Positions 19,558-41,090 of a stretch of DNA of 49,050 nucleotides are shown here, piece by piece; position 1 is the first letter of the stretch, and each line of letters opens with the position of its first letter. The stretch spans positions 1-49,050 of the forward strand of contig NZ_JAUYRO010000097.1 in assembly GCF_030696805.1 (NCBI RefSeq), given 5' to 3'. The position numbers and the translations under genes are program-made. The notes below the pieces were generated by a model. It was not told where the DNA came from and did no database searches. It worked only from the letters and a program-made list of their open reading frames with translations. Origin of the DNA: Methyloversatilis sp. (GTDB taxonomy: Bacteria; Pseudomonadota; Gammaproteobacteria; Burkholderiales; Rhodocyclaceae).

Positions 19558-20339
19558 ACGCTGCCTGATTCGGTCGCCGTGACAGTCGCATCATCGGCCG
19601 CTGCGGCCGGTGCGTCACCGCCGCGCTGCGCCGTGCGGTCCAGCAGCACGCGCAGATGGCCGAGCGACAGCAGTTGCGCATAGACCAGACCCATCCAGCC
19701 GCGGCGGAACAGATCGACCGCCGCCGCCGCCGACAGTGATTGCAGCTTCGCTTCGTCGATCACCCACAGCCCATCGAGGCGGAACTTGCGACCGTCCTTC
19801 AGTTCGGCCATCGCGCTCATTTCGTTCAGCAGGCCAAGCTGTTCGACCTCGCGGCAGAACTCCGCCGTGCGCTGCGCCTCGTTCTGGTAACCCTGCACGA
19901 ACGCCAGCGCATTCTTCAGGAAGGGCGTTTCGGCGCCGTTCTCGTCAAACAGTCGTTCGCCCTCTTCCTTGTTGAAGCCCGGAAACTGTTCGTCCATGCA
20001 CACCAGCAGCTTGTCGGGGGCCGTGTTGTCCTGCACCGCGACGAAAGGGTAGCGGCGCACGAAGGCGGGCACGTAGCGTGCGTCCCACTTGCCTTCGTCG
20101 TTCAGATAGAGGTTTTCCGCGTCGCGCAGACCGAGCAGCGCCACCGGTACCAGACCGCCCGGCAGCCGTGCGAACACGATCGGGTACTCGCGCGCCACAT
20201 CGCCGAACTCGACCAGCGCCAGCGGCACGCAGTTGGTGCTCGCGGCGAAACGCAGGTTGTCCTGCGGCTTCAGGTGAAGGTCACGGTGGGTGTCGCGGTT
20301 CAGAACGACCACACTGTCGTAGAAAAGCAGCGTTTTCAT
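19551..20339 (-). CDS. SapC family protein
   Basis: A 262-residue member of the SapC (PF07277) family, named after a Campylobacter surface-layer gene; no biochemical role is firmly known. The N-terminus MKTLLFYDSVVVLNRDTHRD and the central FARLPGGLVPVALLGLRDAENLYL block support the assignment. The start at 20339 has GGAAGGATTTCA immediately upstream; a longer frame to 20642 lacks family similarity. No signal peptide is visible. Divergent from the haemoglobin gene, convergent with envZ. Confidence 0.8.
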   Translation of the reverse strand: MKTLLFYDSVVVLNRDTHRDLHLKPQDNLRFAASTNCVPLALVEFGDVAREYPIVFARLPGGLVPVALLGLRDAENLYLNDEGKWDARYVPAFVRRYPFVAVQDNTAPDKLLVCMDEQFPGFNKEEGERLFDENGAETPFLKNALAFVQGYQNEAQRTAEFCREVEQLGLLNEMSAMAELKDGRKFRLDGLWVIDEAKLQSLSAAAAVDLFRRGWMGLVYAQLLSLGHLRVLLDRTAQRGGDAPAAAADDATVTATESGSVH

Positions 20340-20507
20340 TGAAATCCTTCCGGTGGATGGGAGTGCGCCGGGGCAGATTCTATGCCGCCCGCTCGGGCCG
20401 CCGCGCGAAAAACGACCGCGCGATGCCCAAAGTCCGGCAGGCCGGAGCGATATAAAATCACGCTTTGAGGCCACCACCGGTAGCCGACTGAACACGCTCA
20501 CCACCCC

Positions 20508-20909
20508 ATGACACAGACCCAACCCGCCAGCACCACCTTCTACGACCACATCGGTGGCGCCCCCGCCGTGCGCACGCTGGTCGATCGCTTCTACGAGCTG
20601 ATGGACACGCTGCCCGAGGCCTACGGCATCCGCAAGCTGCATCCGGCCGACCTGTCCGGCTCAGCCGAAAAGCTCTACATGTATCTGTCCGGCTGGCTCG
20701 GCGGCCCGCAGCTGTACATCGAAGCCTACGGCCACCCGCGCCTGCGCGCGCGCCATCTGCCCTTCACGATCGGCGAGGCGGAACGCGACCAGTGGCTCAT
20801 GTGCATGCGCATGGCGATGGAAGAAGTGCTGCCGCCGGACGATTCCAACGCGCAGCTTTACGGCGCGCTGGCTGACCTGGCCGACCACATGCGGAACATG
20901 GCCGGTTAG
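20508..20909 (+). CDS. Group II truncated haemoglobin
   Basis: A 133-residue 2-over-2 globin that binds haem and handles O2 or NO. The proximal haem ligand should be His83 in RARHLPFTIGEAERDQWL, with the group II marker Trp96 in the same helix and Tyr29 at the B10 position. Length is typical. It is a single gene divergent from the SapC-family gene; no FNR-type box was found in front of it. Confidence 0.92.
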   Translation: MTQTQPASTTFYDHIGGAPAVRTLVDRFYELMDTLPEAYGIRKLHPADLSGSAEKLYMYLSGWLGGPQLYIEAYGHPRLRARHLPFTIGEAERDQWLMCMRMAMEEVLPPDDSNAQLYGALADLADHMRNMAG

Positions 20910-21147
20910 CGACCGTCGGCAGGCCTGCCCGTCGGGGGAGGGAACTCCAGCCGGCTAACCGATGGCGCTCGCCCGCCGCGCCGCAGCGAACCTGGCCTAT
21001 CGAAACATCTGTGCGAAGGCTGCTCCGCATCCGTGCCTCGCCTCATCGGGCAAGGTGGCGCAGGATGCTGGCGAGTATCTGCGGCACGCGTTGCGGGTCG
21101 CGGCCGATGTCCTGCAACAGCGCGTCGACCGTCGCCTTACCCGGCGC

Positions 21148-21579
21148 TCACAGCCCGCCATGGGCCGACCAGAAAGCGGCCGGCGTCACAATGGCATAAC
21201 GATCCGCCAACGCGAGCAGGTCTTTGTCGCCCGTCACAAGGTAGTGAGCGCCCGAGGTATTCAGCGCGGCGAGCAGGGTGGCCAGTACCGGCTGGTCGTT
21301 CCCATAGCGAAGGTCCGGTTCGAGACTTGGCAGCGGTTCGATGACTTCGGCCTGGATCGAAAGCACATCGACGAGGTCGTCGATCTCCGTCGCCGTCAGG
21401 CCATGGCGATGCTCGAGGCGTGGCAGCACGCGCCGCAATTCTTCCAGTATGTATATAGAGAGCACCACGTCCACCGAACCGTGGCGCCACGCGGCCAGTA
21501 TCTTGCCCGGCAGGCTGCCCGGATACGCAATGCCCGACAGCAGCACGTTGGTGTCGAGCACGACCCGCAGCGTTGCCAC
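21148..21579 (-). CDS. PIN-domain toxin (putative ribonuclease)
   Basis: A 143-residue PIN-domain protein, predicted Mg-dependent RNase and toxin of the upstream antitoxin. The acidic residues are visible: Asp9 (VVLDTNVLLSG), Glu46/47, Asp95 and Asp118/120 (VTGDKDLLAL). It resembles the COG1569 group. The start is GTG at 21579, six bases after the antitoxin stop and without its own ribosome binding site, so translation is likely coupled. After its TGA the same frame stays open for another 34 codons. Confidence 0.85.
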   Translation of the reverse strand: MATLRVVLDTNVLLSGIAYPGSLPGKILAAWRHGSVDVVLSIYILEELRRVLPRLEHRHGLTATEIDDLVDVLSIQAEVIEPLPSLEPDLRYGNDQPVLATLLAALNTSGAHYLVTGDKDLLALADRYAIVTPAAFWSAHGGL

Positions 21580-21918: not shown

Positions 21919-22186
21919 CGGCCCTCGTTGAGAATCAAGTGAACTTCAGGCATGTAGATGAACAGATCCGGGAGCCAACGGCACCGTGTATCAGCTGTCC
22001 ATCTCGCATCACCCCCGAATTTTCGTTCGACTTCGCCCGGCTCCGAGCCTGCTTTGCGCGGAATCGGAAGCGGACATCCACCACTCACCCGCGCCTTACG
22101 AGCGCGACGGGTGTGGGCGGGCTGGCGTCAGCGGGTGAAGGCGTCCGGGATGCTGACGACAGCGTCGGCGCGCCATTCAGCTAACC

Positions 22187-22200
22187 TTGATCAACATCAA
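22187..22200. promoter_or_regulatory. Perfect FNR/ANR-type box
   Basis: TTGAT CAAC ATCAA matches the FNR consensus TTGAT-N4-ATCAA at all ten defined positions. It lies 89 bases before the TonB receptor start and next to a Fur-like sequence, suggesting oxygen-responsive control of the receptor and the downstream cytochrome. Confidence 0.6.
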
Positions 22201-22202
22201 AC

Positions 22203-22221
22203 GCAAATCATTCTCATAAGC
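22203..22221. promoter_or_regulatory. Fur-like site
   Basis: GCAAATCATTCTCATAAGC; read on the minus strand it contains TGAGAATGATT, close to the Fur box core. It begins two bases after the FNR-type box and precedes a TonB-dependent receptor, a classic Fur target. Match is partial. Confidence 0.45.
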
Positions 22222-22289
22222 TTACTTTTGTATAGATCTATTGATCAGGCGAGCCAGCGCATGCCAGCCAGCCCCTTACGGAGACTGTC

Positions 22290-24371
22290 ATGCCCCTGCA
22301 CCCGCCCCTGCGCGCTGCCGCACCCCCTATCGCGATCGCATTGCTGTGCGCCTTTCCCGCCGCACAGGCCGCGGACGCCGACAAGATCCTTCCGTCCGTC
22401 ACCGTGACCGCTACGGGTTACGCCATGTCCGACAACGAAACACCGATCGCCACGACGGCGCTCGATCGCACCGAACTCGACCGGCGCGGCAGCGCAAACG
22501 TGGGCGAAGCGCTGCGCGGCGAGCCGGGCATTGCCGTCGCCTCGGACAGCGCCCAGGGACAGAACCCGGTGATCCGCGGGCTTGGTCGCGACAGCATCGT
22601 GCTGCTGGTCGATGGCATGCGCTTCAATTCCGCGCAGCCGGCCGGCGCCATCGCCTCGTTCATGTCGCTCGGCCTGGCGGAAATGGTCGAAGTGGTGCGC
22701 GGCGGCGCATCGGTGCTCTACGGAACCGGTGCACTGGGCGGCGCCATCAATGTGCTGTTGCCGCAGGCGAAGTTTGTCGATGGCGCGCGCATCGATGCCG
22801 GCGCCCGCTTCGACAGCGCCAGCGAAGGCCTGCGCGGCACCGCGGTCACGAATATCGGCCATGGCGATCACGCGCTGATGATCGGCGTGTCGACAGCCCG
22901 CATCGGCGACTACGACACGCCGGACGGCAAGGCCGCGCGCACCGGCTACGATTCCGATGCGCTGATCGGCCAGTACCGCTTCCGCATCGACGGCGAACAG
23001 CAATTGCGCGTATCGGCCCAGCTGCATCGCGACGAAGACGTGTGGTACCCGGGTTCGACCCGGCCGCACCCGAGCAATCCCGCCAGCCGCAGCACCACGG
23101 TGCGCTCACCCGGGCAGGAACGCAGCCTGTTCGAACTGGGCTACAGCCTGCAGGCCGGCGGCGACCGCCCGCTCAACCTTGATGTGCGCCTCTACCGCCA
23201 GAACATGCAGCGGCAGATCTTCGCCTACGCCAACTGGCTCGGGCGCGACATCGTCACCACCCGCGTGGACTTCGAAACCGACGGCTTCGACGCCCGCGGC
23301 GACTGGCTGGTCCATCCGCAACATCTGTTGTCGGCCGGCGTGAATGCCTGGGAAATGCGCGCCGACCCGAACCGGCAGATGGCGGCAGCGCCGGCCTTCG
23401 CGACCTTCGCGGAGAACGCACCCTTCGATGATGCACGCGTACGCGCCATCGGCGCCTATGTGCAGGACGACATGCGTTTCGGTGCGCTGAACGTGCTGGC
23501 CGGCCTGCGCCATGACAAGGTCACGTCCGACGCTGACAGCATGAGCAACGGCGCACGCACGACCGGGCTGGCCGGCGCGGACAGCGCACTTTCGGGCAGC
23601 CTGGGCGCGATCTACCGCATCACGCCGCTGCTGCGTCCCTACGCCAGCTATGCCCGCGCGTTTCGCGCGCCGGGCATGCGAGAGCGCTACGAATCCGGCC
23701 TGCGCGGCGACGGTTACTTCTACGCCGGCAGCCCGGAGGTCGAAGCGGAAAAGGCCGACCAGTTCGAACTGGGCATCAAGGGCAGCAGCGACGATTTCGC
23801 CTACAGCCTGTCGGCCTATCACAACCGCATCGACAACTACCTGACCGGCCGCATCCTGAGCGGTGCCGAAGCGATCGCCGCCTGCGGTGGCCCCAATGCA
23901 GCGAACTGCAAGAAGAACGTGAATCTCGGTTCGGCGACGATACGCGGCATCGAAGCATCGCTGCGCTGGCAGATCGCGCGCGGTCACTGGCTGAGCGCGG
24001 CGTATTCAGCGCTGCGCGGCGACAACGACGACCTCGACGAACCGCTGTTCCAGATGCCGGCCGACGAGCTGTCGCTGGGCTGGACCGGCAAGGTGCTCGA
24101 TGCCGTGCGGGCCGACTTCACGCTGCGCCTGGTCGACCGCCAGGACCGCGTGGCCACCGTCTTCACGCGCGGCGCGGAAGATGAAACCGCGGGCTTCGTC
24201 ACCGCGGACGCCGGTTTCACCATCCCGCTCGAGCGCTCGCAAAGCCTGCGCGTGGCCGTGCGCAACCTCGCCGACAAGACCTATCACGAACACCTCGCCG
24301 ACGGCCTGTCCGGACAGGAACTGCGCGCCGTGGGCCGTTCGCTGCAGGTGAGCTGGCGCGGCAGTTTCTGA
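22290..24371 (+). CDS. TonB-dependent outer-membrane receptor
   Basis: Outer-membrane gated channel of 693 residues for an iron or haem-type ligand. A signal peptide ends near AAQA (residue 27), a TonB-box-like SVTVTATG follows, then a plug domain (about 50-155, with VIRGLGRDSIVLLVDGMRF and VEVVRGGASVLYGTGALGG), and a 22-strand barrel ending in Phe (VSWRGSF). The Fur-like and FNR-type sites upstream agree with metal- and oxygen-dependent expression. A cytochrome c'-like gene follows after 69 bases. The exact substrate cannot be assigned. Confidence 0.9.
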   Translation: MPLHPPLRAAAPPIAIALLCAFPAAQAADADKILPSVTVTATGYAMSDNETPIATTALDRTELDRRGSANVGEALRGEPGIAVASDSAQGQNPVIRGLGRDSIVLLVDGMRFNSAQPAGAIASFMSLGLAEMVEVVRGGASVLYGTGALGGAINVLLPQAKFVDGARIDAGARFDSASEGLRGTAVTNIGHGDHALMIGVSTARIGDYDTPDGKAARTGYDSDALIGQYRFRIDGEQQLRVSAQLHRDEDVWYPGSTRPHPSNPASRSTTVRSPGQERSLFELGYSLQAGGDRPLNLDVRLYRQNMQRQIFAYANWLGRDIVTTRVDFETDGFDARGDWLVHPQHLLSAGVNAWEMRADPNRQMAAAPAFATFAENAPFDDARVRAIGAYVQDDMRFGALNVLAGLRHDKVTSDADSMSNGARTTGLAGADSALSGSLGAIYRITPLLRPYASYARAFRAPGMRERYESGLRGDGYFYAGSPEVEAEKADQFELGIKGSSDDFAYSLSAYHNRIDNYLTGRILSGAEAIAACGGPNAANCKKNVNLGSATIRGIEASLRWQIARGHWLSAAYSALRGDNDDLDEPLFQMPADELSLGWTGKVLDAVRADFTLRLVDRQDRVATVFTRGAEDETAGFVTADAGFTIPLERSQSLRVAVRNLADKTYHEHLADGLSGQELRAVGRSLQVSWRGSF

Positions 24372-24440
24372 TCCTGCGTGCGGGCGGCCGTGCCGGCGGC
24401 CCGCCATCCTTCACTCCATCACCCCATCGACACATCCATC

Positions 24441-24938
24441 ATGAAAACACTCCGACGCCTCGGCTTCACCACCTTCTGCTGTGCCGCAGCCGCCCTGTTC
24501 GTGACCGTCGCCCTGCCCTCGGCCGCACACGACGCCCGCCACGCGCCCGCCGACGCCATCGACGCGCGCCACCCCATTCCGCTGAACGCCGCCGAACGCG
24601 CCTTCCTGCTGGCCGAAATGCGCGAATTCCTCGCGGCGACCCAGCGCATTCTCGCCGCCAGTCAGGCCAACGACATGAAAGCCGTCGCCGAGGCCGCCTC
24701 CAGCGTCGGCCTGAAGGCGCACAAGGACGACTTCGCCAACCCCAATTCCATGGTGCAGGACATCCGCAGGAAGGCACCGCCCGCCTTCCTGCCGCTGGGC
24801 CGCACCACCCACGCCGGCTTCGACGAAATCGCCGACATCGCCACGACGATGGGCGACAAGGATGCCGTGAATCAGCTGCTGGCAGCGAACCTGCAGAACT
24901 GCGTCGCCTGCCACGCGGGCTACCGCATCGCGGATTGA
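24441..24938 (+). CDS. Cytochrome c'-like periplasmic haem protein
   Basis: A 165-residue exported protein. The signal peptide (about 1-29) is followed by a mostly helical domain and a single C-terminal haem c site, Cys154-Val-Ala-Cys157-His158 with AGYR after it; a C-terminal CxxCH followed by YR is the cytochrome c' pattern. The start at 24441 is chosen because it begins the signal peptide. Likely co-transcribed with the TonB receptor. It may bind NO or serve in electron transfer; overall similarity to true cytochrome c' could not be tested. Its last codons overlap the artificial tail of the truncated hsdS frame. Confidence 0.75.
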   Translation: MKTLRRLGFTTFCCAAAALFVTVALPSAAHDARHAPADAIDARHPIPLNAAERAFLLAEMREFLAATQRILAASQANDMKAVAEAASSVGLKAHKDDFANPNSMVQDIRRKAPPAFLPLGRTTHAGFDEIADIATTMGDKDAVNQLLAANLQNCVACHAGYRIAD

Positions 24939-26155
24939 CGCGCGGGCCTGCTGGCGTCCTTCGGGGCGCGGCAGGGGTCGGGCAAGGCGCTTTTCAGGGT
25001 GAGGCCGGGGCTGTCGGTCGCGCGTCCGATATCCGTGAGGTGTCCCGGATACCACTGACCAGAAGCCTTCCGATACATCAGCCGGGCTTCACTTCTGCGG
25101 CGGGCGCGAATGGCTCTCGACATACTGGCGAAGCACGCCGTCATGGGCGACTGCCACCCCTCGCCCGTCGACTTGAACAAGTAACTTCCTGTTCTCCGAC
25201 TTCGGTCGCCGGCGCAGCGCCCCCGGCGGCGCTGATCGAAGGCATGGCACGCATCGGCTTCGGCATCACCCACGTCTATGGTCTGACCGAAACCTACGGC
25301 CCGGCCGGAGTGCAGGAAAACCTGTCCGAACAGATCCGCCTCAACGGCCGTCAGGGCGCGCGCTACCCGATGCAGGAAGGCATGACCGTGCTCGACGCGG
25401 GCACGCTTACCGAAGTGCCGGCCGACGGCCACACCATGGGCCAATTCCCAGTGCTCAGGAATATCGCCGAGCCAGGGGATGCCGGAGGGTTTGAGGGGGA
25501 CGGAGGGGTCGAGGCCGCGGGTGACGGCGCGGTGGATGATGGCCTGCTTCTGTTCGTTAAGCAGCGCAATCACCTTCCGCTTCCCCCGGATCGCTCGTTC
25601 CAGCCGCCCGTTCGCCCAGTCCAGAAACCGCACAATCGCCACCTGCTCGTCGGGTGGGGGAAGCGGGATTGGTGCGTCAAGAAACGCTGTGTCGGTCAGC
25701 TGTAGTCGGGAAATCCAGACGCCCTTCGACCTGACCTGTAGCTCCCAGTGGATCGCTGACGAACGGACCAACTCGTGCAGAAACCGGGGATTGATCTGCG
25801 CTGAAGGACGGCTCCGATAGACGCTGTAAGCGGTGCTGATGATTCCATGATGCTGTGACACGCCCAATCCGCCGCCCCACGCCCAGAGAATGTTGATGAC
25901 TAAGTCGCCAGGCCAGCACAACTTGTGACCAGCGTAGGACTCCGCCTTGAACATCGTCACATTGGCGCTGCTGCGAGGCACCACTCCGCGAGCGGAGCTA
26001 ACGGTGAGAAGCTCCTCTCTGCCGGTCTTTGACCGTTCGTCGATGGTGGCCAAGTAGGATTTGCCACGCTTGGTCACCCAATGCCCCGGCACCTGCCCGA
26101 GCCACAACAGCCCCGACTCCTTGTACTCCGCATACGGCTTGAGGTCGGCGATCAT
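24920..26155 (-). CDS. hsdS: Type I restriction-modification specificity subunit HsdS, truncated and fused to foreign sequence
   Basis: The first 239 residues are a genuine HsdS: target-recognition domain 1 (about 15-160), the conserved PIPLPPPDEQVAIVRFLD and helical spacer (to about 210), and the first residues of the second half (SGIPWLGDIPEHWEL). At about 25439 homology stops. The remaining 172 codons are antisense to the acyl-CoA synthetase fragment and unassigned sequence, and overlap the cytochrome gene's 3' end, so they are not a real domain. Target domain 2 is gone. Some half-length S subunits still work as dimers, so function is uncertain. The ATG overlaps the preceding stop (ATGA). 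Confidence 0.8.
   Translation of the reverse strand: MIADLKPYAEYKESGLLWLGQVPGHWVTKRGKSYLATIDERSKTGREELLTVSSARGVVPRSSANVTMFKAESYAGHKLCWPGDLVINILWAWGGGLGVSQHHGIISTAYSVYRSRPSAQINPRFLHELVRSSAIHWELQVRSKGVWISRLQLTDTAFLDAPIPLPPPDEQVAIVRFLDWANGRLERAIRGKRKVIALLNEQKQAIIHRAVTRGLDPSVPLKPSGIPWLGDIPEHWELAHGVAVGRHFGKRARVEHGHAFLHRVARALTAVEADLFGQVFLHSGRAVGFGQTIDVGDAEADACHAFDQRRRGRCAGDRSRRTGSYLFKSTGEGWQSPMTACFASMSRAIRARRRSEARLMYRKASGQWYPGHLTDIGRATDSPGLTLKSALPDPCRAPKDASRPARQSAMR
25201..25440 (+). pseudogene. Fragment of an AMP-dependent acyl-CoA synthetase gene
   Basis: About 80 codons on the plus strand encode AGAAPPAALIEGMARIGFG, THVYGLTETYGP, then RYPMQEGMTVLDAG and EVPADGHTMG. These are the ATP/AMP-binding core motifs (YGLTE) of an acyl-CoA synthetase (AMP-binding family). 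Nothing before or after continues the gene: the left end stops near 25205 and the right end meets hsdS sequence near 25440. It is a dead internal scrap of a gene normally about 540 residues long. Confidence 0.82.
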
Positions 26156-27978
26156 GGCTGGCCTCCCGTCAACAGGTCAGCGGGGTTCCAGATGCGCTCG
26201 GCGATCTGCCGGTAGAGCTGACTGCGGCTTTCGAGGTCGGCTTTGTTGAATTCGGCCCGCGCCACGAACGGAAGGCCGCTCTGCTCCATGAAGCGGAGGA
26301 AGCCTGGGTTGCGGTCATAGCACTGAGCGTGCAACGAGCGCGCCAGCAGGTTCTGGGTGTTGTAGTGCGGTAGTTTCTCGGCGTAGGTGAGGTCGCCGTA
26401 GCTGGCGTTGAAACTCTTTGGTAGAAGCAGCAGACCGCCAATGCGGTTGCGGTGCTCGCCGAAGTCAGCGGGATGGCCGAACTCGGCGGTGTGGCGTTCG
26501 GCATGGTCGGCCCAGATGTGCTCCACTTCGTAGCGGGTTTTGCCCTCGCTCACGTAGTCGAGATAGCGCGAGGGTTGGCCGGACTGCGTTTCCACATAGT
26601 CGGTGAGGCGGGCCAGGATGCGGTGCAGGGGGTAGCGGTTCTGCTGGTGCATCCGCAAGCGGTCGTTGCTGGCGAAGGTCTCGCCTTCCTTGCCAAGGAA
26701 CTCGTGCAGCTTGTGGGCAAGGGCATCGGCCGCAAGGCCGCGAATGTCACGCATCACCACGAACATGGCGTACTGCATGGTCGAGTAGGCGATGGTGCGG
26801 AAGTTCCACAGCCGCCACGTGAGCAGGATGTCGAGATACTGCGCCACGAGGCCGACCTTGCGGACGACCACCGGCTCGCTGTCGTCGGGACGTAGCGGCG
26901 CGAGCAGGAGCATATATTGCAAGGTGAAGCCCTGCTGAGCGTTGTAGAGCACGTGCTCCAGGCCGGGCACGGGCTCCTGCGCAGCCTCGATGAGCCGCAG
27001 GTATTGCCGGCTGTAGAAGTCGAAGTCGCGGTCGATGAAGCGGTAGAAGTCGTCGCTCTGCTTGAGGCCCACAGTGTCGGCGGCGTCGCGCAGCCAGCGG
27101 TGAAACTCGGTGCCGATGCGGTCGAAGTCCTCGGGCTTTGCGCCTTTCTTGCGCTCGCGGATCTTGGTGGCGTGCTGACTGCGGAACCACGCCTTGAAGC
27201 AATCGGATTCCACTTCCTTGCCCGCACCGTTGAGTTCGCGGATGCGGTCGCGCCAGCGAGTGTTGGCGCTGGTGCGCTTGGCCTCGTCGATGTTGGCGAG
27301 CAGGTAGCCTTTGAGCATGTCCGTGGGGCTGAGCGAGAGCCCGCGGTCGTTCATGGTCTCGAAGATCGTGTAGGCGTCGTCGTCTGAGTACGCGGTTATC
27401 TCGACGAGGTGGACGTTCTCCAGCAGCCAGTCGATGAAGTAAGGCAGTGCTGCTTCGCGCAGTTCCTCGGGGAAGCAGGTTTCGAGGTCGCGGTAGCGCT
27501 GCACGAGATTCTGTACCGACTCGGGGCGATCGGTGACGTCGAAAGGCTGACCGTCGTAGAGCGCCTCCATTGCCTGGGTGCGCTCATCGACATGGAGGTT
27601 GAAGGACTTCTGGTCGAACTTCTCGGAGAAGATCAGCTCGTCCACATTCACCTGCTTCGTCTGGTCCTTTTGCAGGTTGCGGAGGAGGATCAGCAGCAGC
27701 GTGAGACTGGTAAGCCGCTGCTGCCCGTCCACAATGTAGCCGACGCTTTCCTTCTTGCTGATGATGATGGAGCCGAGAAAGTAGTGGGGATAGTCGGCGA
27801 CCTTGCTGCGCGGGTGCGCAGGCTGATACTCCTCCAGAAACTTGTCGCTCAGGTCGTCCACGAGTTCGCGGATCTGCTTCTCGTGCCACTTGTATTCGCG
27901 CTGGTAGTAGTCGATGGAGTACTTCACTCCCTTGAGCAGTTCGCGAACTGTCTTGGCCTTGCCGAGAATTTCTCTCAC
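26152..27978 (-). CDS. DUF262 and DUF1524 domain protein (GmrSD-like)
   Basis: A 608-residue protein with an N-terminal DUF262 domain (about 10-260; signature DGQQRLTSL, residues 84-92, of the ParB/Srx-like nucleotide-binding fold) and a C-terminal DUF1524 HNH-type nuclease domain (about 480-560; YEVEHIWADH, then HRNRIGGLLLLP and FNASYGD). This architecture is that of the type IV restriction enzyme GmrSD, where DUF262 hydrolyses NTP and DUF1524 cuts modified DNA. The GTG start at 27978 overlaps the preceding stop (GTGA) with GGAG upstream; the frame open to 28197 is only antisense to the neighbour. Encoded between a nuclease gene and hsdS. Confidence 0.88.
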   Translation of the reverse strand: MREILGKAKTVRELLKGVKYSIDYYQREYKWHEKQIRELVDDLSDKFLEEYQPAHPRSKVADYPHYFLGSIIISKKESVGYIVDGQQRLTSLTLLLILLRNLQKDQTKQVNVDELIFSEKFDQKSFNLHVDERTQAMEALYDGQPFDVTDRPESVQNLVQRYRDLETCFPEELREAALPYFIDWLLENVHLVEITAYSDDDAYTIFETMNDRGLSLSPTDMLKGYLLANIDEAKRTSANTRWRDRIRELNGAGKEVESDCFKAWFRSQHATKIRERKKGAKPEDFDRIGTEFHRWLRDAADTVGLKQSDDFYRFIDRDFDFYSRQYLRLIEAAQEPVPGLEHVLYNAQQGFTLQYMLLLAPLRPDDSEPVVVRKVGLVAQYLDILLTWRLWNFRTIAYSTMQYAMFVVMRDIRGLAADALAHKLHEFLGKEGETFASNDRLRMHQQNRYPLHRILARLTDYVETQSGQPSRYLDYVSEGKTRYEVEHIWADHAERHTAEFGHPADFGEHRNRIGGLLLLPKSFNASYGDLTYAEKLPHYNTQNLLARSLHAQCYDRNPGFLRFMEQSGLPFVARAEFNKADLESRSQLYRQIAERIWNPADLLTGGQP

Positions 27979-29090
27979 TTTGCCGCTCCATCGTTCTTGC
28001 GCATCTTCGTCCGCTTCGCTGACTTGCTCGCAGGCTTGGCCCTGGCCTGCTCCGGCGCGTTGAGGGCGTAGAACTCGTGCAGCTTGGCCGCGAGCAGTTT
28101 CTTGTCGGGCAGTTGGGTCTGGTACTCGGCGATCAAGGCCGGCGAGAGCGATCGACTGAGGGCGTATTCCACCACCTCGTTGTCCTTCGAGGCGCACAGC
28201 AGCAATCCGATCGCCGGGTTCTCGTGCGGCTTGCGCGCGTCGCGGTCGAGGGCCTCGAGGTAGAAGTTGAGCTTGCCGAGGTGCTCGGGCTGAAAGGCGG
28301 TGACCTTCAATTCAATCGCCAGGAGACAGTTGAGGCCGCGGTGGAAGAACAACAAATCGAGCGCGAAGTCCTGGCCGCCGACTTGCACCGGGTATTCGGA
28401 GCCGACGTAGCAGAAGTCGCGCCCCAGTTCGGTCAGGAAGCGTCCAAGATTCCGCAACAGCGATTGGTGCAGGTCAGCTTCGGAATGCTCGCCGGGCAGG
28501 GCCAGGAACTCGAGGAGGTAGACGTCCTTGAAATGGCTGGCGGCCGCAGGATGCAATTCTCTCAACGCTGTTGAGAGTTTTGGAGGACTCAGTACCGCCC
28601 TCTCGAAGAGGGCAGCATCGAGCTGTCGCGCCACTTCTCGGACCGACCAACGATTCTGCGTCGCCATCCGCAGGTAGAACTCGCGCTCCTCGGATCTCTT
28701 CGAGCGGCTGAGGATGTGCAGATGGGAAGACCAGGGCAAGTCTCTCAACAGCGGTGAGAGTTCTGCATCGTCCCGGTAGGCGACGAAGAACTGCCGCATG
28801 CGCCAGAGATTCTGCGGCGAGAAACCGCGCAGGCCAGGCTCGCGCTGCGCGATCCAGGCAGCCAGTTGCACGACCGTGCCCTTGGCCCAGCCGTCGGCCT
28901 CGATCTTCCGGTGTAGATAGTCACCGATGCGCCAGTAGAGTTCGATCAACCCGGTGTTCACCGCCCGCGCGGCCTGCTGGCGAGCGGCCCGGATCAACTC
29001 GACGATCTCGTCGAAGGCGCGCTCGACCGGCGCCTCCACCGTGGCCTTCGAGCGTGCCGAATTGCCTTGTCCGGCGGAGGTGTTTTTCAT
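27975..29090 (-). CDS. DUF1016 / PD-(D/E)XK nuclease domain protein (YhcG family)
   Basis: A 371-residue protein with an N-terminal DUF1016 winged-helix part (about 25-190, including LYWRIGDYLHRKIEADGWAK and FSPQNLWRMRQFF) and a C-terminal PD-(D/E)XK nuclease domain (about 200-340) whose active-site residues are Asp245, Glu260 and Lys262 (FALDLLFF and LLAIELKV). Such genes are often inside type I restriction loci and their exact role is unclear. Starts within the hsdM stop (ATGA) and ends within the DUF262 gene's start. The C-terminal tail is basic, Lys/Ala-rich. Confidence 0.9.
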   Translation of the reverse strand: MKNTSAGQGNSARSKATVEAPVERAFDEIVELIRAARQQAARAVNTGLIELYWRIGDYLHRKIEADGWAKGTVVQLAAWIAQREPGLRGFSPQNLWRMRQFFVAYRDDAELSPLLRDLPWSSHLHILSRSKRSEEREFYLRMATQNRWSVREVARQLDAALFERAVLSPPKLSTALRELHPAAASHFKDVYLLEFLALPGEHSEADLHQSLLRNLGRFLTELGRDFCYVGSEYPVQVGGQDFALDLLFFHRGLNCLLAIELKVTAFQPEHLGKLNFYLEALDRDARKPHENPAIGLLLCASKDNEVVEYALSRSLSPALIAEYQTQLPDKKLLAAKLHEFYALNAPEQARAKPASKSAKRTKMRKNDGAAK

Positions 29091-31390
29091 GCTTCGGCAT
29101 TCACCTTCAGCAACCCATCAAGCAAGCCCTCCGCCTCTTTCTCGATGGCGAGGATGTCGGCGCTGATCTCTTCCAGCGTACGCAGGGGCTGCGGCTTGTA
29201 GAAGTGGCGCGTGAAGCTGATTTCGTAGCCGATCCGGGTGGCGTCTTCCTTGATCCAGGCGTCGGGCGTGTAGGGCAGCACCTCGCGGCGGATGAAGGCT
29301 TCGATGCCGCCCTCTTCCAGCAGCGGCACCTGTTCGGTGTCGCGCAGGTCGGAATCCGGCTCGTATTCGACGACGGCGGGCTTGCCATCGACGGTGGCCT
29401 CGAACAGGCCGCGCAGCGGGTCGGCCTTGACCTTGCCCGGCTTGTGCACCCTGGCGATGACGGGCGCCGCGGTGTCGACGCGCCAGCTCACGGCCTTCAG
29501 AATCTGCTTCAGATCGGCAGCGGCGAGCTTGATACCGGCCTGCTTGAGCGCGGCGTCGATGCGGTCGCGGAACAGGTTGTGGTCTTCGAACAACGCTTCA
29601 CCCAGTGACGCTCGCAGCATGTTGGCGACTTCGACCAGGCGGCCGTCGCGCTCCCATGTCTTCGGGTCGAGCAGCTTCTTGCGCTTCTTCTCGGGCAGGC
29701 CCTTCTTCGCGCCGCCGTCCTCATCGTCGCCCTCGTCCTCATCATTACCCCAGTCGGCCAGGCGCTGCTCCAGGGAGGCCGACACATTGGCAAACCCGGA
29801 GAACAGGTCGTCGCCGAACTCATCGACCAGCGCCGCGCGGATGTCTTCGTCGCCGGACGTGAACCGCAACGTGTCGATGGCCTTGAGCGTGAGCTGGCTG
29901 TGCAGGCGCAGCGGGCGCTCGACCGTCACCTTCCAGTAGCCGAAGGCCGCGTTGGGGAAGATCTTCGATTCCGGGGTCTCCTTGAAATCGAGGAAGGTGC
30001 GGCTGATGCGGTCGATGTCGTCGGGCGACAGTTCGCAGTTCTTCTTGCCGAGGTTCTTGCGCAGCGGCTTGAACCACTGGCTGGCGTCGATGAGCTGCAC
30101 CTGCCCTGTGCGGTGCGCGGGCTTTCGGTTCGACAGCACCCACACGTACGTGGCGATGCCGGTGTTGTAGAAGAGGTTGAGCGGCAGCGCGACGATGGCT
30201 TCGAGCCAGTCGTTTTCGATCAGCCAGCGGCGGATATTGCTCTCGCCCTGCCCCGCATCGCCGGTGAATAGCGACGAGCCGTTATGCACCTCGGCGATGC
30301 GGCTGCCCAGCGCCGACTTCCCGTTCATCTTCGAAGCCATGTTGGCCAGGAAGAGCATCTGCCCGTCGCTTGAGCGCGTGACCAGCGACAGTTCCTCGCC
30401 CGCGTGCATCACCTTGAAGCGCGGGTCGCGCATGCCGTCCTTGCCGCCCATCGCCTCCAGGTCCTTCTTCCAGCTCTTCCCGTAAGGCGGGTTGGCGATC
30501 ATGAAGTCGAATTCCTGCGCGGGAAAAGCGTCGTGCGCCAGCGTGGACCATTCCGCGCCACCCACGATGTGGTCCGCGCTATCGCCCTCGCCCTTCAGCA
30601 GCATGTCGGCCTTGCAGACCGCGTAAGTTTCCGGGTTGATCTCCTGACCGTAGAGCAGACTTCTGACCTGCTGGCCGCGCCGGTCGCCGATGGCGGTCAG
30701 CGTCTCTTCGGCCACGGTGAGCATGCCGCCGGTGCCGCAGGCGCAGTCATAAAGCAGATAGGTGCCCGAGCGGATGTCGGCCTCGATCGGCAGGAACACC
30801 AGGTTGGCCATCAGGCGCACCGCGTCGCGCGGCGTCCAGTGCTCGCCCGCCTCTTCGTTGTTCTCTTCGTTGAACTTGCGGACGAGCTCCTCGAACACCG
30901 TGCCCATCGAGTGGTTGTCGATGCCGGCCGGCGAAAGATCGATGTCGGGGTCGAGAAACTTGTTGATCAGCGTGCCGATGGCATCAGCCTTCGACAGCGT
31001 CTGCAACTGGTTGCGGAATTTGAAGTTGTCGAGGATGTCCTGAACGTTCGGCGAAAAGCCGTCCAGGTAGTCCTCGAAGTCGGCCAGCAACTGCTGCTGG
31101 CTGCCGCGCGACTTGAGGTCGCGCAGCGTAAACCTCGACGTGTTGTAGAACGCCTGCCCCGCCGCCGCACAAAGCGCCGCCCGCTGCTCGGTGATGCCGG
31201 CGTCGTCGAGCATCTTGCGGGTACCGAGTACCTGCTGCTTCGTCGGCTCGAGCACCGCATCCATCCGCCGGATGACGCACATCGGCAGAATCACGTCCGG
31301 GTACTTGCCCCGCTTGAAGAGGTCGCGCAGGACATCGTCGGCGATGCCCCAGATGAAGGAAACGATCTTGTTGTGGGTTGCTTGGTCCAT
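29087..31390 (-). CDS. hsdM: Type I restriction-modification DNA methyltransferase HsdM
   Basis: N6-adenine methyltransferase of 767 residues. The N-terminal HsdM_N helical domain (about 5-165) is followed by the SAM-binding motif YDCACGTGGM (Asp215) and the catalytic NPPY (300-303, NPPYGKSWKKD). The C-terminus is longer than in short HsdM proteins and contains an acidic stretch (about residue 590, DEDEGDDEDGG). The start at 31390 (MDQATHNKIVSFIW) is preceded by non-family sequence and has no strong ribosome binding site. It heads a four-gene operon with hsdS at the end; no hsdR is present in the window. Confidence 0.93.
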   Translation of the reverse strand: MDQATHNKIVSFIWGIADDVLRDLFKRGKYPDVILPMCVIRRMDAVLEPTKQQVLGTRKMLDDAGITEQRAALCAAAGQAFYNTSRFTLRDLKSRGSQQQLLADFEDYLDGFSPNVQDILDNFKFRNQLQTLSKADAIGTLINKFLDPDIDLSPAGIDNHSMGTVFEELVRKFNEENNEEAGEHWTPRDAVRLMANLVFLPIEADIRSGTYLLYDCACGTGGMLTVAEETLTAIGDRRGQQVRSLLYGQEINPETYAVCKADMLLKGEGDSADHIVGGAEWSTLAHDAFPAQEFDFMIANPPYGKSWKKDLEAMGGKDGMRDPRFKVMHAGEELSLVTRSSDGQMLFLANMASKMNGKSALGSRIAEVHNGSSLFTGDAGQGESNIRRWLIENDWLEAIVALPLNLFYNTGIATYVWVLSNRKPAHRTGQVQLIDASQWFKPLRKNLGKKNCELSPDDIDRISRTFLDFKETPESKIFPNAAFGYWKVTVERPLRLHSQLTLKAIDTLRFTSGDEDIRAALVDEFGDDLFSGFANVSASLEQRLADWGNDEDEGDDEDGGAKKGLPEKKRKKLLDPKTWERDGRLVEVANMLRASLGEALFEDHNLFRDRIDAALKQAGIKLAAADLKQILKAVSWRVDTAAPVIARVHKPGKVKADPLRGLFEATVDGKPAVVEYEPDSDLRDTEQVPLLEEGGIEAFIRREVLPYTPDAWIKEDATRIGYEISFTRHFYKPQPLRTLEEISADILAIEKEAEGLLDGLLKVNAEA

Positions 31391-31739
31391 CAGTCGGGGA
31401 GGTTCGTCATGTACGTGGTGAGGTGGGGTGGCGCTTTCGTAAAGACTACTTGACGAAGGCTGCTGACGTTTCTTTTTGGGTATGAACCTGTGTATTAGGT
31501 CGTGCCGACATTGGGAGTGAGAGGTTCGATCTAGCTCGCTGGGCAAAGTCATCTCGAATGAGAAAAATAGGGGTGCAATTTATCACCCCGCGTTCTTGTA
31601 TTCGTGCTCGGCCACCCATTGCAAATACACACAAATTACGCGTATCTTCATCGCACTGCGATCGTACTCAAAAGAATATACGGAAAAATTCTGCCCCTAT
31701 TTTCCCCTCTGATATTCACGATCTGCCGCCTGTCTCTAG
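31391..31739. other. AT-richer upstream region of hsdM
   Basis: About 350 bases without a convincing gene. Base composition is clearly more AT-rich than the flanking core genome. It must carry the promoter of the hsdM operon, but no -35/-10 pair stands out. Confidence 0.4.
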
Positions 31740-32048
31740 TTATTTACCTTGCAAGGCTTGAAAAAGACACTCTGAACGTGCCGCCTCCGCTGCTTTTACC
31801 GCTTTCGAAGCATTAATATCGGCGCCAATCGCTGCTGATCTTGTGACCTCCGCTAACCCGAATGCTTGCTCTGCGTATTCCGCAGCATCCGATGCATCAG
31901 TTGCGATCGATATTAATTTGGCGTTCAAACTGTCGATCTTTTGAATCGCGATAAGCATGAGTATTAGTACGAGCGTTCTATAGGAAAATACTAACGCCGT
32001 GCGATAGCGTTCTAACAATAGATTCACCAGGATCATCTTCATTCCCAT
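31740..32048 (-). CDS. Small putative membrane protein, hypothetical
   Basis: A possible 102-residue protein. One hydrophobic segment lies near residues 18-36 (ALVFSYRTLVLILMLIAI), followed by an Ala-rich, probably coiled-coil tail (ATDASDAAEYAEQAF and onward). The pattern is protein-like, yet no good ribosome binding site marks the start: ATGs at 32048, 32042 and 32036, or a GTG at 32075, are possible. It lies in AT-rich island DNA between hsdM and the SEC-C gene. Family not recognised. Confidence 0.35.
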   Translation of the reverse strand: MGMKMILVNLLLERYRTALVFSYRTLVLILMLIAIQKIDSLNAKLISIATDASDAAEYAEQAFGLAEVTRSAAIGADINASKAVKAAEAARSECLFQALQGK

Positions 32049-32203
32049 GACAGAATAGCCGATGGATCGCTCCACAAGCTACGAGAAATGGGCCGACCAT
32101 AAATATCCGTATCCTTCCGCGTATCATGACTTGTCCTGCGTGGCAATAGAGGAAAGACAACGAATACTCACTCGAAGGTAGAAGACTTATTCGTGGTCTG
32201 TCC

Positions 32204-32239
32204 CCGATTGTTCGCCGATTGTTCGGCCCCCGATTGTTC
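32204..32239. repeat. Three short direct repeats of CCGATTGTTC
   Basis: CCGATTGTTC occurs at 32204-32213, 32215-32224 and 32230-32239, in a 280-base stretch with no recognised gene downstream of the SEC-C gene. Could be protein-binding repeats or slippage; role unknown. Confidence 0.45.
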
Positions 32240-32327
32240 CGCGGATAGCAGACCATAAATTAGCCGTTAAAACCGATATAAAGGCCGTACAAATAATATC
32301 TGGTCGGTCAACAGTACCTACGAGCAC

Positions 32328-34661
32328 TCAACTGCCGTGACACCTTTTGAACTTTGCTCCGCTCCCGCACGGACACGCGGCATTCCGTCCTATCTTTTTG
32401 CTTTTGACAGCAGGGATGACATTCTTTCGCCGATTGAGATTGACTGAACGCGCGGGGTTAGCCATTCGCGCGGCATCTTCATATATGTGGGCGTTTTCTT
32501 CCGTTCTCTCTGTCGGGGTGTGGACTGCGAAAGACTGCGCCGAAGAGTAACTTCCATCGGCACTAACTTCTGCCACGATGCCGACGACGTTGGACGCCTT
32601 GACGGTAAGCGCAGCTGCGCTGGCCTTGTTATTCACCTTGGTCCAGTCAATTGGGTGGTCATGCCTTAGAAGCCAAACGAAGAACGCTCCACCATCACCG
32701 GACAGAATGAAGTAGCGAGCGGGATGCTGGTTCAGAGTTTGTCGAAGGTCGGACAGCATCTTGGCCAGATTATTCCGGCCTTCCTCGCCTAGATCACGGA
32801 TATGGCTCTCCGCCGAAAGCCACCCGCGCGCTCGGGTTGCGTCTAGCGCCCCAAGCAACTTCAGCACCTCAGCCGGGAAGTCTTGTGTAGGAAACGGCCC
32901 GTTTTCCCAGTCATCACCCTCGAAGCTTCTGTCGACGATGTCGCTCATGCCATCCCAGATAAGCATGCTCGCCTTGCCACCCTTCAACTGCTCGGCAATG
33001 TCATGATCGAAACGGTTCTTCTTCAGATACGCGCCCAAGTGGTCAAACTCGTCGAAAAGATGAGACTGGCGCATCCCCGCCACGGCTTGTCGCACCTCCA
33101 TGTAATGGGCGAACTCGCCGGGTGTAGGCAGGAGTCGCTTGAGTACAAACAGATCGTCGATGGACAACGAAACGAAGGCATGCCTTCCAAGTAGCGGCTC
33201 AACCTGCGGCAGTTCCTTGCAGTATGCTGAAAAGGGCGAGAACGACTCAACGGTCAACCCAATCGGCACCATCACTCGGTATTCGGAACGGCGGACAAGG
33301 CCGCATTCTTCGTATTTGCCGTCCACCAGGCGATAGAGAGACACTTCATCCGCGGAATTCAGATAATTGAAGAAGCGCTCGCACTGCTTGTACGCCTTGA
33401 GCACCAAGTCCTGAACGGATTGGACGTGGCGGTCGAAATCAAGCGCTGGCGATGCAATGGTGGCGGCCGCACCAGCCTTGGCCTCAACTAAAAGCAGCAC
33501 GTCATCTACCAAGATTAGGGCGTCGTTCTCGGACCATTGCTTACTGACCGGATTCTTGTAGTAGATCTCCTGGAGGACTGTGGCGCTTGGGAGCTGAGCG
33601 ACCAGAATGTCGGCGAAGGCAGCTTCGCTCATCTTCCTCTGACGATCCTCAAACGTCTTCTTGTATTCCGGTTTTCGCTGCAGCAGATTGTAAAGAAGCG
33701 CGCGATACCCCGCATCGCGGGCGAAACACGGGTCGACGGCATAGTAGTCTGCCCCAAGCTGAATCAATGGTTTCTTCCGGGCGGGCAATGTCCGGTAGGG
33801 GGTCCCCGCAAAATCGCCCGCAGCGAAGAACTCCGTTTCTTCTCCGCGCTGATACGCTAGGTCCGCTAGCAGCGTTGGCGGTAGCTTCGTGTGACGGCTT
33901 ACGTTGGTGATGCCGCCCCGAAACATGTCATCCATTGCCCGCTCGGTGGCTTTCGCCTGTTCCGCATTGGCTGCAACCCATTCCTCCATGACGTCTTCCA
34001 AAGGCTTATCCTGTGCCGCAGCGAAGGCCTGAGCTGCCTCAAACTGCTTCATGATCGCCATAGAAGCGTCGGCATGCCCTGAACGCGTGGCGTCAGCCAT
34101 GGCCTGGAAGCCTTCCGCAATATCGGCGGCACCAACGCCATACACTTCTTGTAGGACATCATTGTGAGGCGCCAGAACGTAGCGGTAAAACTCGCGCTCC
34201 AAAACCTGGTAGCGGTTCCCACGCATCATGACCCAAGTGGATTTCGCGTGAAATTCAATATCGGCAGTGGCGGGACCGAAGATGCCATCTTTGGTACCAG
34301 CAGACGTGGCCATTGCGAAAAATATGGCCTGCTCTCGCAGTTTGCGGCCAAGCTCAAACAGCTCTGCGCAACGAGCTTCGTCGAATGTCATTTCCGCAGG
34401 AGCAGCATCTGCCGCGAGAACCGCGTGCACATACTCCAGCAAGAACTGGTTTTCGTTAATCAGTTCATCTGGGGCGTCCGTTTCGCACTGCCCCTCGGCG
34501 GCGCTTTGATCTGCCATCGCTTTCATCATGTACTGGGCATAGATGTAGCCGAGCAAATCATGCGGAGGCATAGCAACAATTAGTTCGCGGATGCGAGCGG
34601 AACCGGCTTCCATGTCCTTCAACAAAGAAGCGGTGACCTCATTTAGTTTTTTTTCGTCCAA
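32328..34661 (-). CDS. Large protein with PD-(D/E)XK-like motif and C-terminal SEC-C zinc motif
   Basis: A 777-residue protein of unrecognised overall family. The C-terminus is a SEC-C metal-binding motif (Cys763, Cys765, Cys774, His775; NAACPCGSGAKFKRCHGS), which often makes such genes be mislabelled as SecA-like. Near the middle, Asp380 and Glu393-Ala-Lys395 (NDALILVDDVLLLVEAKAG) followed by a helix with regularly spaced Leu and Gln fit a NERD/PD-(D/E)XK nuclease core. The N-terminal 300 residues are helical. The TTG start at 34661 has GGGAGA upstream. Its place in an island beside restriction genes suggests defence; this is inference. Confidence 0.72.
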   Translation of the reverse strand: MDEKKLNEVTASLLKDMEAGSARIRELIVAMPPHDLLGYIYAQYMMKAMADQSAAEGQCETDAPDELINENQFLLEYVHAVLAADAAPAEMTFDEARCAELFELGRKLREQAIFFAMATSAGTKDGIFGPATADIEFHAKSTWVMMRGNRYQVLEREFYRYVLAPHNDVLQEVYGVGAADIAEGFQAMADATRSGHADASMAIMKQFEAAQAFAAAQDKPLEDVMEEWVAANAEQAKATERAMDDMFRGGITNVSRHTKLPPTLLADLAYQRGEETEFFAAGDFAGTPYRTLPARKKPLIQLGADYYAVDPCFARDAGYRALLYNLLQRKPEYKKTFEDRQRKMSEAAFADILVAQLPSATVLQEIYYKNPVSKQWSENDALILVDDVLLLVEAKAGAAATIASPALDFDRHVQSVQDLVLKAYKQCERFFNYLNSADEVSLYRLVDGKYEECGLVRRSEYRVMVPIGLTVESFSPFSAYCKELPQVEPLLGRHAFVSLSIDDLFVLKRLLPTPGEFAHYMEVRQAVAGMRQSHLFDEFDHLGAYLKKNRFDHDIAEQLKGGKASMLIWDGMSDIVDRSFEGDDWENGPFPTQDFPAEVLKLLGALDATRARGWLSAESHIRDLGEEGRNNLAKMLSDLRQTLNQHPARYFILSGDGGAFFVWLLRHDHPIDWTKVNNKASAAALTVKASNVVGIVAEVSADGSYSSAQSFAVHTPTERTEENAHIYEDAARMANPARSVNLNRRKNVIPAVKSKKIGRNAACPCGSGAKFKRCHGS

Positions 34662-34679
34662 AACTATTCTCCCGTACTA

Positions 34680-35353
34680 TCAGTTGCTCTTACCCATGAT
34701 CACCGTTCTGCGGCGCTTAGCAACCAACTCCGATGCCGTGCGCAGTGAGTCATCCTGAGTGTGAACCGTAGCGGATAAACATTGCCACGGTCTTGTGTGC
34801 CGTCGGCGCCATGCCCACCTTGACTGGAATGCCCGAGTTAAAGATGTCGGCGGCAGAGCGGTTACGAAAGGCGTGTGTGCCGGAGTGTTGCCCCAGCGGC
34901 CTTGGGCCCGGCTCCAGCCACAGCAACACTCACCTTCGGTGAGAGTCTTGGTCGGGCCATTTGGTGAGGGCAGGACGTAGGGGTAGCCGTCCCGGCGTGC
35001 TGGGCTTGTTACGTACGTTGGAGTAGTCCTCCATGAACTTCAGACACAACTCCTTGATCGTCGGGCCTTGCGTGCCGCTGTCTTGCCGGCAGCAGGATCG
35101 CTCCCCTCACGCAACTGAGTCATCCATTCCTACGCCGGCGATGGGTCTTTTCGACCGTCAGCTCCCCGTCCTGGCCAAAGGCACGCTCAAGGCGCTCGTC
35201 CGCGTTCGTGCGTCACTGGCGCACGAACACCTTACGGCCCGAGGTTGTAATCTTGTATAGGGAGTTAGTCACCAGCGTCTCCCGTAGTTTGATGGCATGC
35301 GTCTGAGGTTTTACCGCATCGACTGCGGACTTGGTGAGCCTGAGTTTTGCCAT
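34680..35353 (-). pseudogene. Degraded tyrosine recombinase (phage-type integrase)
   Basis: On the minus strand the start MAKLRLTKSAVDAVKPQTHA reads as the arm-binding N-terminus of an integrase and stops after TSGRKVFVRQ. Downstream pieces in shifted frames read RTNADERLERAFGQDGELTV, then CLKFMEDYSNVRNKPST, then THAFRNRSAADIFNSGIPVK with ending TAHKTVAMFIRY, then VHTQDDSLRTASELVAKRR. The 674-base span is about half a normal integrase gene, so there are frameshifts, a stop and internal deletions. It borders the serine-cycle genes and marks the right end of the island. Confidence 0.75.
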
Positions 35354-35364
35354 GATGAATGGTG

Positions 35365-35400
35365 AAAAGAAAAGGCCGCCCGAGGGCGGCCTTTTCTTTT
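35365..35400. terminator. Bidirectional intrinsic terminator after ftfL
   Basis: A 16-bp stem with an AAAAGAAAA/TTTTCTTTT base and GGCCGCC/GGCGGCC core closing a 4-base CGAG loop (35381-35384). T-rich tails exist on both strands. It lies 14 bases after the ftfL stop. Confidence 0.9.
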
Positions 35401-35414
35401 CGGGGATGCTCAGA

Positions 35415-37088: not shown

Positions 37089-37184
37089 ATCGGTTTTTTC
37101 CGTGTAGTCGAGATGTGGTCATGAATCGGATGCGGGCGCGACCGGCGAGTGCCGATGCGCGCCCCCTCTATATATATGCAGCGA

Positions 37185-38162: not shown

Positions 38163-38231
38163 GGATGTCTCCTCCGTTGATGGTGTGAATGTTGAATGAA
38201 TGGTTCAAAACGATGAACAGGGCGCACCCGG

Positions 38232-40988: not shown

Positions 40989-41090
40989 GATGGACCTTCG
41001 CTGGTCGAGGTTGGGCGCTGCCCGCCGGACCGGAGCGGCCCGACGGACAGTGCAGCGCAGCGGATGGCGCCTGGATCAGACGTCGTTCGA

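What the first reader, a model, noticed from the sequence alone, without database searches (positions are those of the whole stretch)
24920..31390. Four-gene overlapping operon hsdM / DUF1016 nuclease / GmrSD-like / hsdS, with no hsdR
Seen: each of the three junctions is a 4-base start/stop overlap (29087-29090, 27975-27978, 26152-26155), so the proteins are made in coupled amounts. Known: HsdM and HsdS form a methyltransferase; GmrSD-type proteins cut modified DNA; DUF1016 proteins carry a PD-(D/E)XK nuclease domain. Inference: the nuclease work of the missing HsdR may be supplied by the DUF1016 and/or DUF262-DUF1524 proteins, giving a composite defence system; or hsdR was lost in the rearrangement at the hsdS end.
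Basis: partly seen in the sequence, partly recalled or inferred. Interest (0 to 1): 0.75.

Follow-up and report, generated by a model that had tools for sequence, protein, structure and literature searches.

The report
Truncated type I restriction operon
A bacterial DNA-defence operon that carries two extra nuclease genes has lost its main cutting gene and half of its target-recognition gene where it meets a broken metabolic gene; relatives keep the cutting gene, so this looks like a damaged copy of a known kind of locus rather than a new system.

Summary
In detail: hsdM, DUF1016, GmrSD-like and hsdS lie on the minus strand with three 4-base overlaps and no hsdR. hsdS stops at the start of its second recognition domain (about 25,440) and runs into an internal piece of an acyl-CoA synthetase gene that a same-genus genome has intact in the same neighbourhood. 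Of 80 GmrSD-like loci kept by one scan, 37 have hsdM upstream and hsdS downstream: hsdR is seen in 26, in 17 of 17 with at least 5.5 kb after hsdS, and the other 11 end within 1.4 kb of hsdS. Searches of the own genome found no detached hsdR of this family. GmrSD genes inside type I loci are in print (RloF, TgvAB). The GmrSD-like gene may well work alone: two Opitutus MAGs keep it (93% identical) between hsdM and hsdS stubs, and five loci with 5 kb on both sides show no labelled type I gene. Best reading: a type I locus with two embedded defence genes that lost restriction. A half-HsdS methylase may remain. The exact four-gene order was seen in two relatives only, both cut off after hsdS.

The parts
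29087..31390 (-). hsdM, type I N6-adenine methyltransferase subunit, 767 aa, uninterrupted; NPPY motif present in the sequence
   Evidence: N6_Mtase 1.3e-51, HsdM_N 5.3e-22; PADLOC MTase_I 1.8e-254; 86.5% identical to L021 HsdM over 765 aligned residues
27975..29090 (-). DUF1016 / YhcG PD-(D/E)XK nuclease-like protein (PADLOC PDC-S02), 371 aa, uninterrupted; D245, E260, K262
   Evidence: in 27 aligned sequences D245 27, E260 24 (D in the other 3), K262 26
26152..27978 (-). single-chain GmrSD-like protein (DUF262 + DUF1524), 608 aa, uninterrupted; DGQQR 84-88, E484, E486, H487, N511, N524
   Evidence: these residues conserved in at least 97% of 80 sequences; HEC-06 7.9e-37
25439..26155 (-). 5' half of hsdS: first target-recognition domain, central conserved region and about 16 residues of the second repeat
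   Evidence: PADLOC Specificity_I residues 5-239 on profile 4-241 of 448; alignment with relatives; 90% identical to L022 over 225 residues
24920..25438 (-). 3' part of the 411-aa ORF, not HsdS; would add about 170 unrelated residues to the half-HsdS if translated
25204..25447 (+). internal remnant of an acyl-CoA synthetase (AMP-binding) gene, with a 24-base gap against the intact gene; both ends of the gene missing
   Evidence: 85% identical over 268 columns to part of a 574-aa ORF in same-genus genome G379; AMP-binding 3.5e-6, under the Pfam cut-off
29087..29090 (-). hsdM/DUF1016 overlap ATGA
27975..27978 (-). DUF1016/GmrSD overlap GTGA
26152..26155 (-). GmrSD/hsdS overlap ATGA
25448..35353 (.). 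variable segment (about 9.9 kb) between the acyl-CoA synthetase remnant and the conserved right flank; holds the hsd operon and a 777-aa SEC-C gene
   Evidence: same-genus stretches L115 and L116 match the window from 35354 and 35372 onwards at about 96%; apart from a 92-base match in L115 (32152-32241, 82%) they show no match of 60 bases or more inside the segment

Best explanation
This is a probably acquired type I restriction-modification locus with two embedded defence genes (DUF1016/PDC-S02 and a single-chain GmrSD-like, type IV-type nuclease) at a variable chromosomal site. Shown: the 3' half of hsdS is missing, no hsdR of this family was found in the genome, and the DNA beyond the break is a remnant of an acyl-CoA synthetase gene that a sister genome has intact in this neighbourhood. 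Inferred: one or more insertion/deletion events at this edge removed hsdR, the 3' half of hsdS and most of the synthetase gene, so type I restriction should be off. Inferred: the GmrSD-like protein works on its own as a modification-dependent nuclease against phages with modified bases, with DUF1016 as a second module of unknown mechanism. HsdM with the half-HsdS may still methylate a palindromic target as a half-S homodimer, as reported for the truncated S subunit of NgoAV, or may be inactive because of the foreign tail.
For: hsdR seen in 26 of 37 M-G-S loci, 17 of 17 with at least 5.5 kb after hsdS, the other 11 cut off by contig ends (strict rule 24 of 34 and 15 of 15). Own genome: HSDR_N hits only in C27 and C76, each with its own hsdM; the HsdR of the G081 locus (GmrSD 89% identical) finds only C27, at 27% identity. 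hsdS ends at the second repeat. Beyond it lies an internal part of the synthetase gene that G379 has intact between stretches matching the window on both sides. G376 has an AAA ATPase gene at this site. Autonomy: L018 and L019 keep an uninterrupted GmrSD (93%) between stubs of hsdM (103 aa) and hsdS (101 aa); of 24 loci with no type I gene labelled on the same strand, five have at least 5 kb on both sides and none on either strand (L047, L077, L080, L087, L097); the type I / no type I label needs at least 12 changes on the tree. Precedent: TgvAB protects with HsdR mutated (PMC11411939 passage).
Against: No function was tested. The exact M-DUF1016-G-S order with a visible tail was not found. 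L172 (hsdM-DUF1016-hsdS) shows about 5.5 kb after hsdS without a labelled hsdR. hsdM, DUF1016 and GmrSD are uninterrupted with low pairwise dN/dS to relatives, which fits recent loss but also continued use. Misassembly at the break cannot be excluded without reads. In L018/L019 the GmrSD genes differ at only 11 of 1830 bases (dN 0.0042, dS 0.0122), so nothing is shown about selection, while the hsdM stubs differ at 33 of 309, which is unexplained; the hsdS stub has a 1-base shift near its end. In print, tgvAB alone protected 10- to 100-fold less than the whole cluster against several phages.
Confidence: 0.8

Rival explanations
1. Composite system: HsdM plus half-HsdS mark self, and the DUF1016 and/or GmrSD-like protein supplies the cutting that HsdR normally does.
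For: Four coupled genes, conserved nuclease residues, no hsdR. SspE, a DUF262-DUF1524 protein, works with a separate DNA-marking system (passage in PMC8713573).
Against: M-G-S relatives have hsdR wherever more than 1.4 kb after hsdS is visible. GmrSD relatives occur without labelled type I genes, and in L018/L019 with M and S reduced to stubs. hsdS is broken by a remnant of another gene.
Confidence: 0.06
2. Orphan methyltransferase: HsdM plus half-HsdS is an active solitary methylase with a palindromic site, kept for regulation, with the nuclease genes as passengers.
For: The half-HsdS holds the first recognition domain plus the central region. Truncated S subunits of EcoR124I, EcoDXXI and NgoAV act as homodimers (PMC3874165 passages). 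HsdM is uninterrupted.
Against: The ORF adds about 170 unrelated residues. The 2013 review says no such homodimers are reported outside type IC. No methylation data.
Confidence: 0.25
3. The break is an assembly artefact and the true locus continues into an intact hsdS and hsdR.
For: Draft genome of 123 contigs, contamination estimate 2.53; relatives with a visible tail have hsdR.
Against: The DNA beyond the break belongs to this neighbourhood in a sister genome and both outer flanks are syntenic. No hsdR of this family found in the own genome, 99.97% complete by the tool's estimate.
Confidence: 0.06

Closest known systems
TgvAB embedded in the type I RM operon of Vibrio cholerae VPI-2 (PMC11411939; abstract, passages and section 10 seen)
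   Same: GmrSD-family type IV restriction genes inside a type I operon; proposed to complement type I restriction against phages with modified DNA
   Different: TgvAB is two proteins in a five-gene operon that has hsdR; here one fused GmrSD-like chain and DUF1016 lie between hsdM and a truncated hsdS, and hsdR is absent
RloF of Campylobacter jejuni (as described in PMC4619093 passages; Miller 2005 not read)
   Same: DUF262 protein encoded within a type I locus
   Different: lies between hsdS and hsdR, not between hsdM and hsdS
GmrSD family, including single-chain Eco94GmrSD (PMC4619093 passages; PMC4437046 start of abstract in a search listing)
   Same: DUF262 + DUF1524 in one chain, DGQQR and E/D-H-N-N residues
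   Different: no direct sequence comparison with those enzymes was made here; modification dependence untested
PADLOC candidate PDC-S02 (DUF1016/YhcG)
   Same: profile match over residues 17-348
   Different: a candidate name only; no mechanism was recognised in the listings of the searches made
NgoAV truncated HsdS (PMC3874165 passages)
   Same: hsdS broken after the first recognition domain
   Different: here the ORF continues with about 170 unrelated residues, and the type I family is not shown to be IC

Membership tests
Functional type I restriction-modification system | HsdM methyltransferase subunit | tested here: met
Functional type I restriction-modification system | HsdS with two target-recognition domains | tested here: not met
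   about 239 residues, one domain
Functional type I restriction-modification system | HsdR translocase/nuclease of the same system | tested here: not met
   not adjacent; none of this family found in the own genome
GmrSD family (type IV-type) | GmrS/DUF262 domain with DGQQR | tested here: met
GmrSD family (type IV-type) | GmrD/DUF1524 domain with E/D-H-N-N | tested here: met
   GmrSD_C 8.9e-7, 29.3 bits against a cut-off of 23; E486, H487, N511, N524 conserved
GmrSD family (type IV-type) | cleavage that depends on base modification | not testable with these tools
   needs biochemistry or plaque assays
TgvAB | two-protein system, both needed | tested here: not met
   one fused GmrSD-like gene; its neighbour is DUF1016, not a second DUF262 protein
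PDC-S02 (DUF1016) | profile match over most of the protein | tested here: met
   PDLC04795 6.4e-128, residues 17-348 of 371
Composite HsdR-replacing system | conserved without hsdR across relatives | tested here: not met
   M-G-S order: hsdR in 26 of 37, 17 of 17 with enough sequence; undecided for the exact four-gene order

The most novel reading that the evidence does not exclude
The operon now works without HsdR: HsdM with a half-HsdS makes a palindromic-target methylase, and the coupled GmrSD-like and DUF1016 nucleases are gated by that methylation, a restriction system rebuilt from embedded accessory genes after hsdR was lost.
Probability: 0.05. Interest if true: 0.7.

Novelty: new member of a known kind. 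Interest (0 to 1): 0.3.

Why it matters
It looks like an embedded type IV-type gene that has outlived the type I system carrying it, and relatives (L018, L019) keep a GmrSD gene between hsdM and hsdS stubs. That makes it testable whether type I operons carry independent defence genes rather than partners. The window itself is a degraded locus.

Tried and rejected
Detached hsdR in the own genome: searched with HSDR_N and with one relative's HsdR; only two other type I systems found. A second copy of the rearranged segment or of the synthetase piece in the own genome: none. Identical words of 10-20 bases shared by the two segment edges, direct or inverted: none. tRNA genes in the window: none. 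Solved structures: four DUF262 or SspE matches, best 1.6e-9, for the GmrSD-like protein; none for DUF1016. Selection on GmrSD after loss of M and S (L018 against L019): too few differences. Plasmids: 74 records match part of the operon, and all 20 rows shown lie over hsdM only; 11 hold GmrSD-like relatives, all under 60% identity. A paper on DUF1016 in type I loci: none recognised in the listings (those papers were not opened; the library is partial).

Rows and choices to tell: the strict rule left out L022, L035 and L078 (GmrSD or hsdS ORF starts overlap the neighbour) and L018/L019 (stubs); one search recounts with a looser rule that still leaves out L018/L019. The 5.5 kb limit, the 40 loci and the labels were my choices. 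In one search, L093 was labelled 'none' although one search found an hsdR-like ORF near it; 12 rows labelled unknown were not counted in the changes; L026 (GmrSD split in two ORFs) was left out. Of the 24 loci without same-strand type I genes, L032 and L079 have them on the other strand, and L060 and L095 have small hsdM-like ORFs. ORF labels come from profiles built here; distant HsdR or HsdM may be unlabelled. Of 46 genomes with DUF1016 hits, stretches were taken from the own genome (two places) and 18 others. L072 has hsdM in two ORFs. The DUF4062 match of L053 is under its cut-off.

Full report
What is there. Four minus-strand genes, hsdM (31390-29087), DUF1016 (29090-27975), GmrSD-like (27978-26152) and hsdS (26155-), are joined by ATGA, GTGA and ATGA overlaps. 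Pfam confirms N6_Mtase/HsdM_N, DUF1016_N/YhcG_C and GmrSD_N/GmrSD_C; PADLOC adds type I specificity, PDC-S02 for DUF1016 and HEC-06 for the GmrSD-like protein. Nuclease residues are conserved: DGQQR and E486/H487/N511/N524 in at least 97% of 80 GmrSD-like sequences; in 27 DUF1016 sequences D245 in 27, E260 in 24 (Asp in the other 3) and K262 in 26.

The hsdS end. The 411-aa ORF is HsdS for about 239 residues: first recognition domain, central region and the start of the second repeat. From 25447 down to 25204 the DNA is, on the other strand, an internal piece of an acyl-CoA synthetase gene. In the same-genus genome G379 (L116) that gene is a 574-aa ORF lying between stretches that match window 19313-21219 and 35372-40159; G379 shows no match to the window's 22162-24980 in the stretch taken. 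G376 (L115), also same genus, matches 22162-24980 at 97% and 35354-41842 at 96%, and has a 572-aa AAA ATPase gene in between. So the site varies, and the window's segment of about 9.9 kb (25448-35353) stands where sister genomes have other DNA. The synthetase remnant in its home neighbourhood and the syntenic outer flanks make a misassembly unlikely, but no reads were seen.

hsdR. HSDR_N finds two other loci in the genome, C27 and C76, each with its own hsdM. The HsdR of the G081 locus, whose GmrSD is 89% identical, finds only the C27 protein, at 27% identity. C76 reads hsdR-hsdM-DUF1016-hsdS (cut by the contig end), so this genome has a second type I locus with DUF1016 right after hsdM and a 4-base overlap there.

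Relatives. One scan of genome contigs confirmed 345 stretches and kept the best 80. 37 have hsdM upstream and hsdS downstream; 26 show hsdR, 17 of 17 with at least 5.5 kb after hsdS, and the 11 without it end 0-1353 bases after hsdS (the strict rule gave 34, 24, and 15 of 15). All five of the 80 in the order hsdM-hsdS-GmrSD have hsdR (L031, L037, L042, L045, L074). A search of 369 genomes of the class found GmrSD relatives in 9 and DUF1016 in 46, the own genome counted in both. Of 20 DUF1016 stretches taken, 9 are type I loci and 7 of these show hsdR. The other two are L173, cut off in hsdS, and L172, where about 5.5 kb after hsdS hold no labelled hsdR but the contig ends 1.3 kb upstream of hsdM. 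Three more from related genomes (L121-L123) show hsdR. Among the 80, two share the M-DUF1016-G-S order (L023 with a RhuM gene before hsdS; L072 with hsdM in two ORFs), and both contigs end within 133 bases of hsdS. A Fic gene (L052) and a gene with a sub-threshold DUF4062 match (L053) sit between hsdM and GmrSD elsewhere, so that position takes different genes.

Is the GmrSD-like gene independent? In L018 and L019 (Opitutus MAGs) hsdM is a 103-aa stub of its first ~82 and last ~20 residues, and hsdS a 101-aa stub of its first ~54 residues and a piece from near its end. GmrSD between them is uninterrupted, 93% identical to the window's, with ATGA at both junctions. Against L020 both deletions are multiples of three (my reading), but the hsdS stub has a further 1-base shift, so its last residues differ. 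The two GmrSD copies differ at 11 of 1830 bases, so I count one event; the hsdM stubs differ at 33 of 309 bases, which I cannot explain. Of 24 loci without same-strand type I genes, seven have at least 5 kb on both sides; L032 has type I genes on the other strand and L026 a split GmrSD, which leaves five, one of them, L047, next to a DEAD/ResIII helicase gene. On a quick tree the label type I / no type I needs at least 12 changes, with labels set by hand. This supports independence without proving it.

Known ground. PMC4619093 (passages) reports type I genes as the most frequent defence neighbours of GmrSD homologues and cites RloF. PMC11411939 (abstract, passages, section 10) shows TgvAB inside a type I operon, active against phages with hypermodified DNA also when HsdR is mutated; tgvAB alone protected 10- to 100-fold less than the whole cluster against several phages, for which the authors suggest unbalanced expression. 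PMC3874165 (passages) describes truncated HsdS proteins acting as homodimers in type IC systems. Payne et al. 2024 on embedded defences was seen only as cited by others.

Verdict. The composite reading is not supported and the simpler alternative is. How the retained genes act is inference: GmrSD-like as an independent type IV-type nuclease (likely), DUF1016 as a second module (mechanism unknown), and HsdM plus half-HsdS as a possible solitary methylase (uncertain).

Noticed in passing
L018 4882-7324 and L019 9693-12135: hsdM and hsdS reduced to stubs of 103 and 101 aa around an uninterrupted GmrSD gene, ATGA junctions kept; the two hsdM stubs differ far more than the two GmrSD genes.
   Followed up: partly
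window 32328-34661: 777-aa protein with a C-terminal SEC-C motif beside the operon, in a stretch of lower G+C (0.48-0.57) than the flanks; the matches seen cover only its C-terminal end.
   Followed up: no
L115 7393-9111: Same-genus genome G376 has an AAA ATPase gene (AAA_21/AAA_15) at the site where the window has the hsd segment, which suggests a defence hot spot.
   Followed up: partly
L179 743-6100: A second type I locus of the own genome, hsdR-hsdM-DUF1016-hsdS (cut by the contig end), whose DUF1016 start also overlaps the hsdM stop by 4 bases.
   Followed up: partly
L023 4586-5623, L052 8168-9367, L053 2728-3849: RhuM, Fic and possible DUF4062 genes sit inside related type I operons next to the GmrSD gene.
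   Followed up: no
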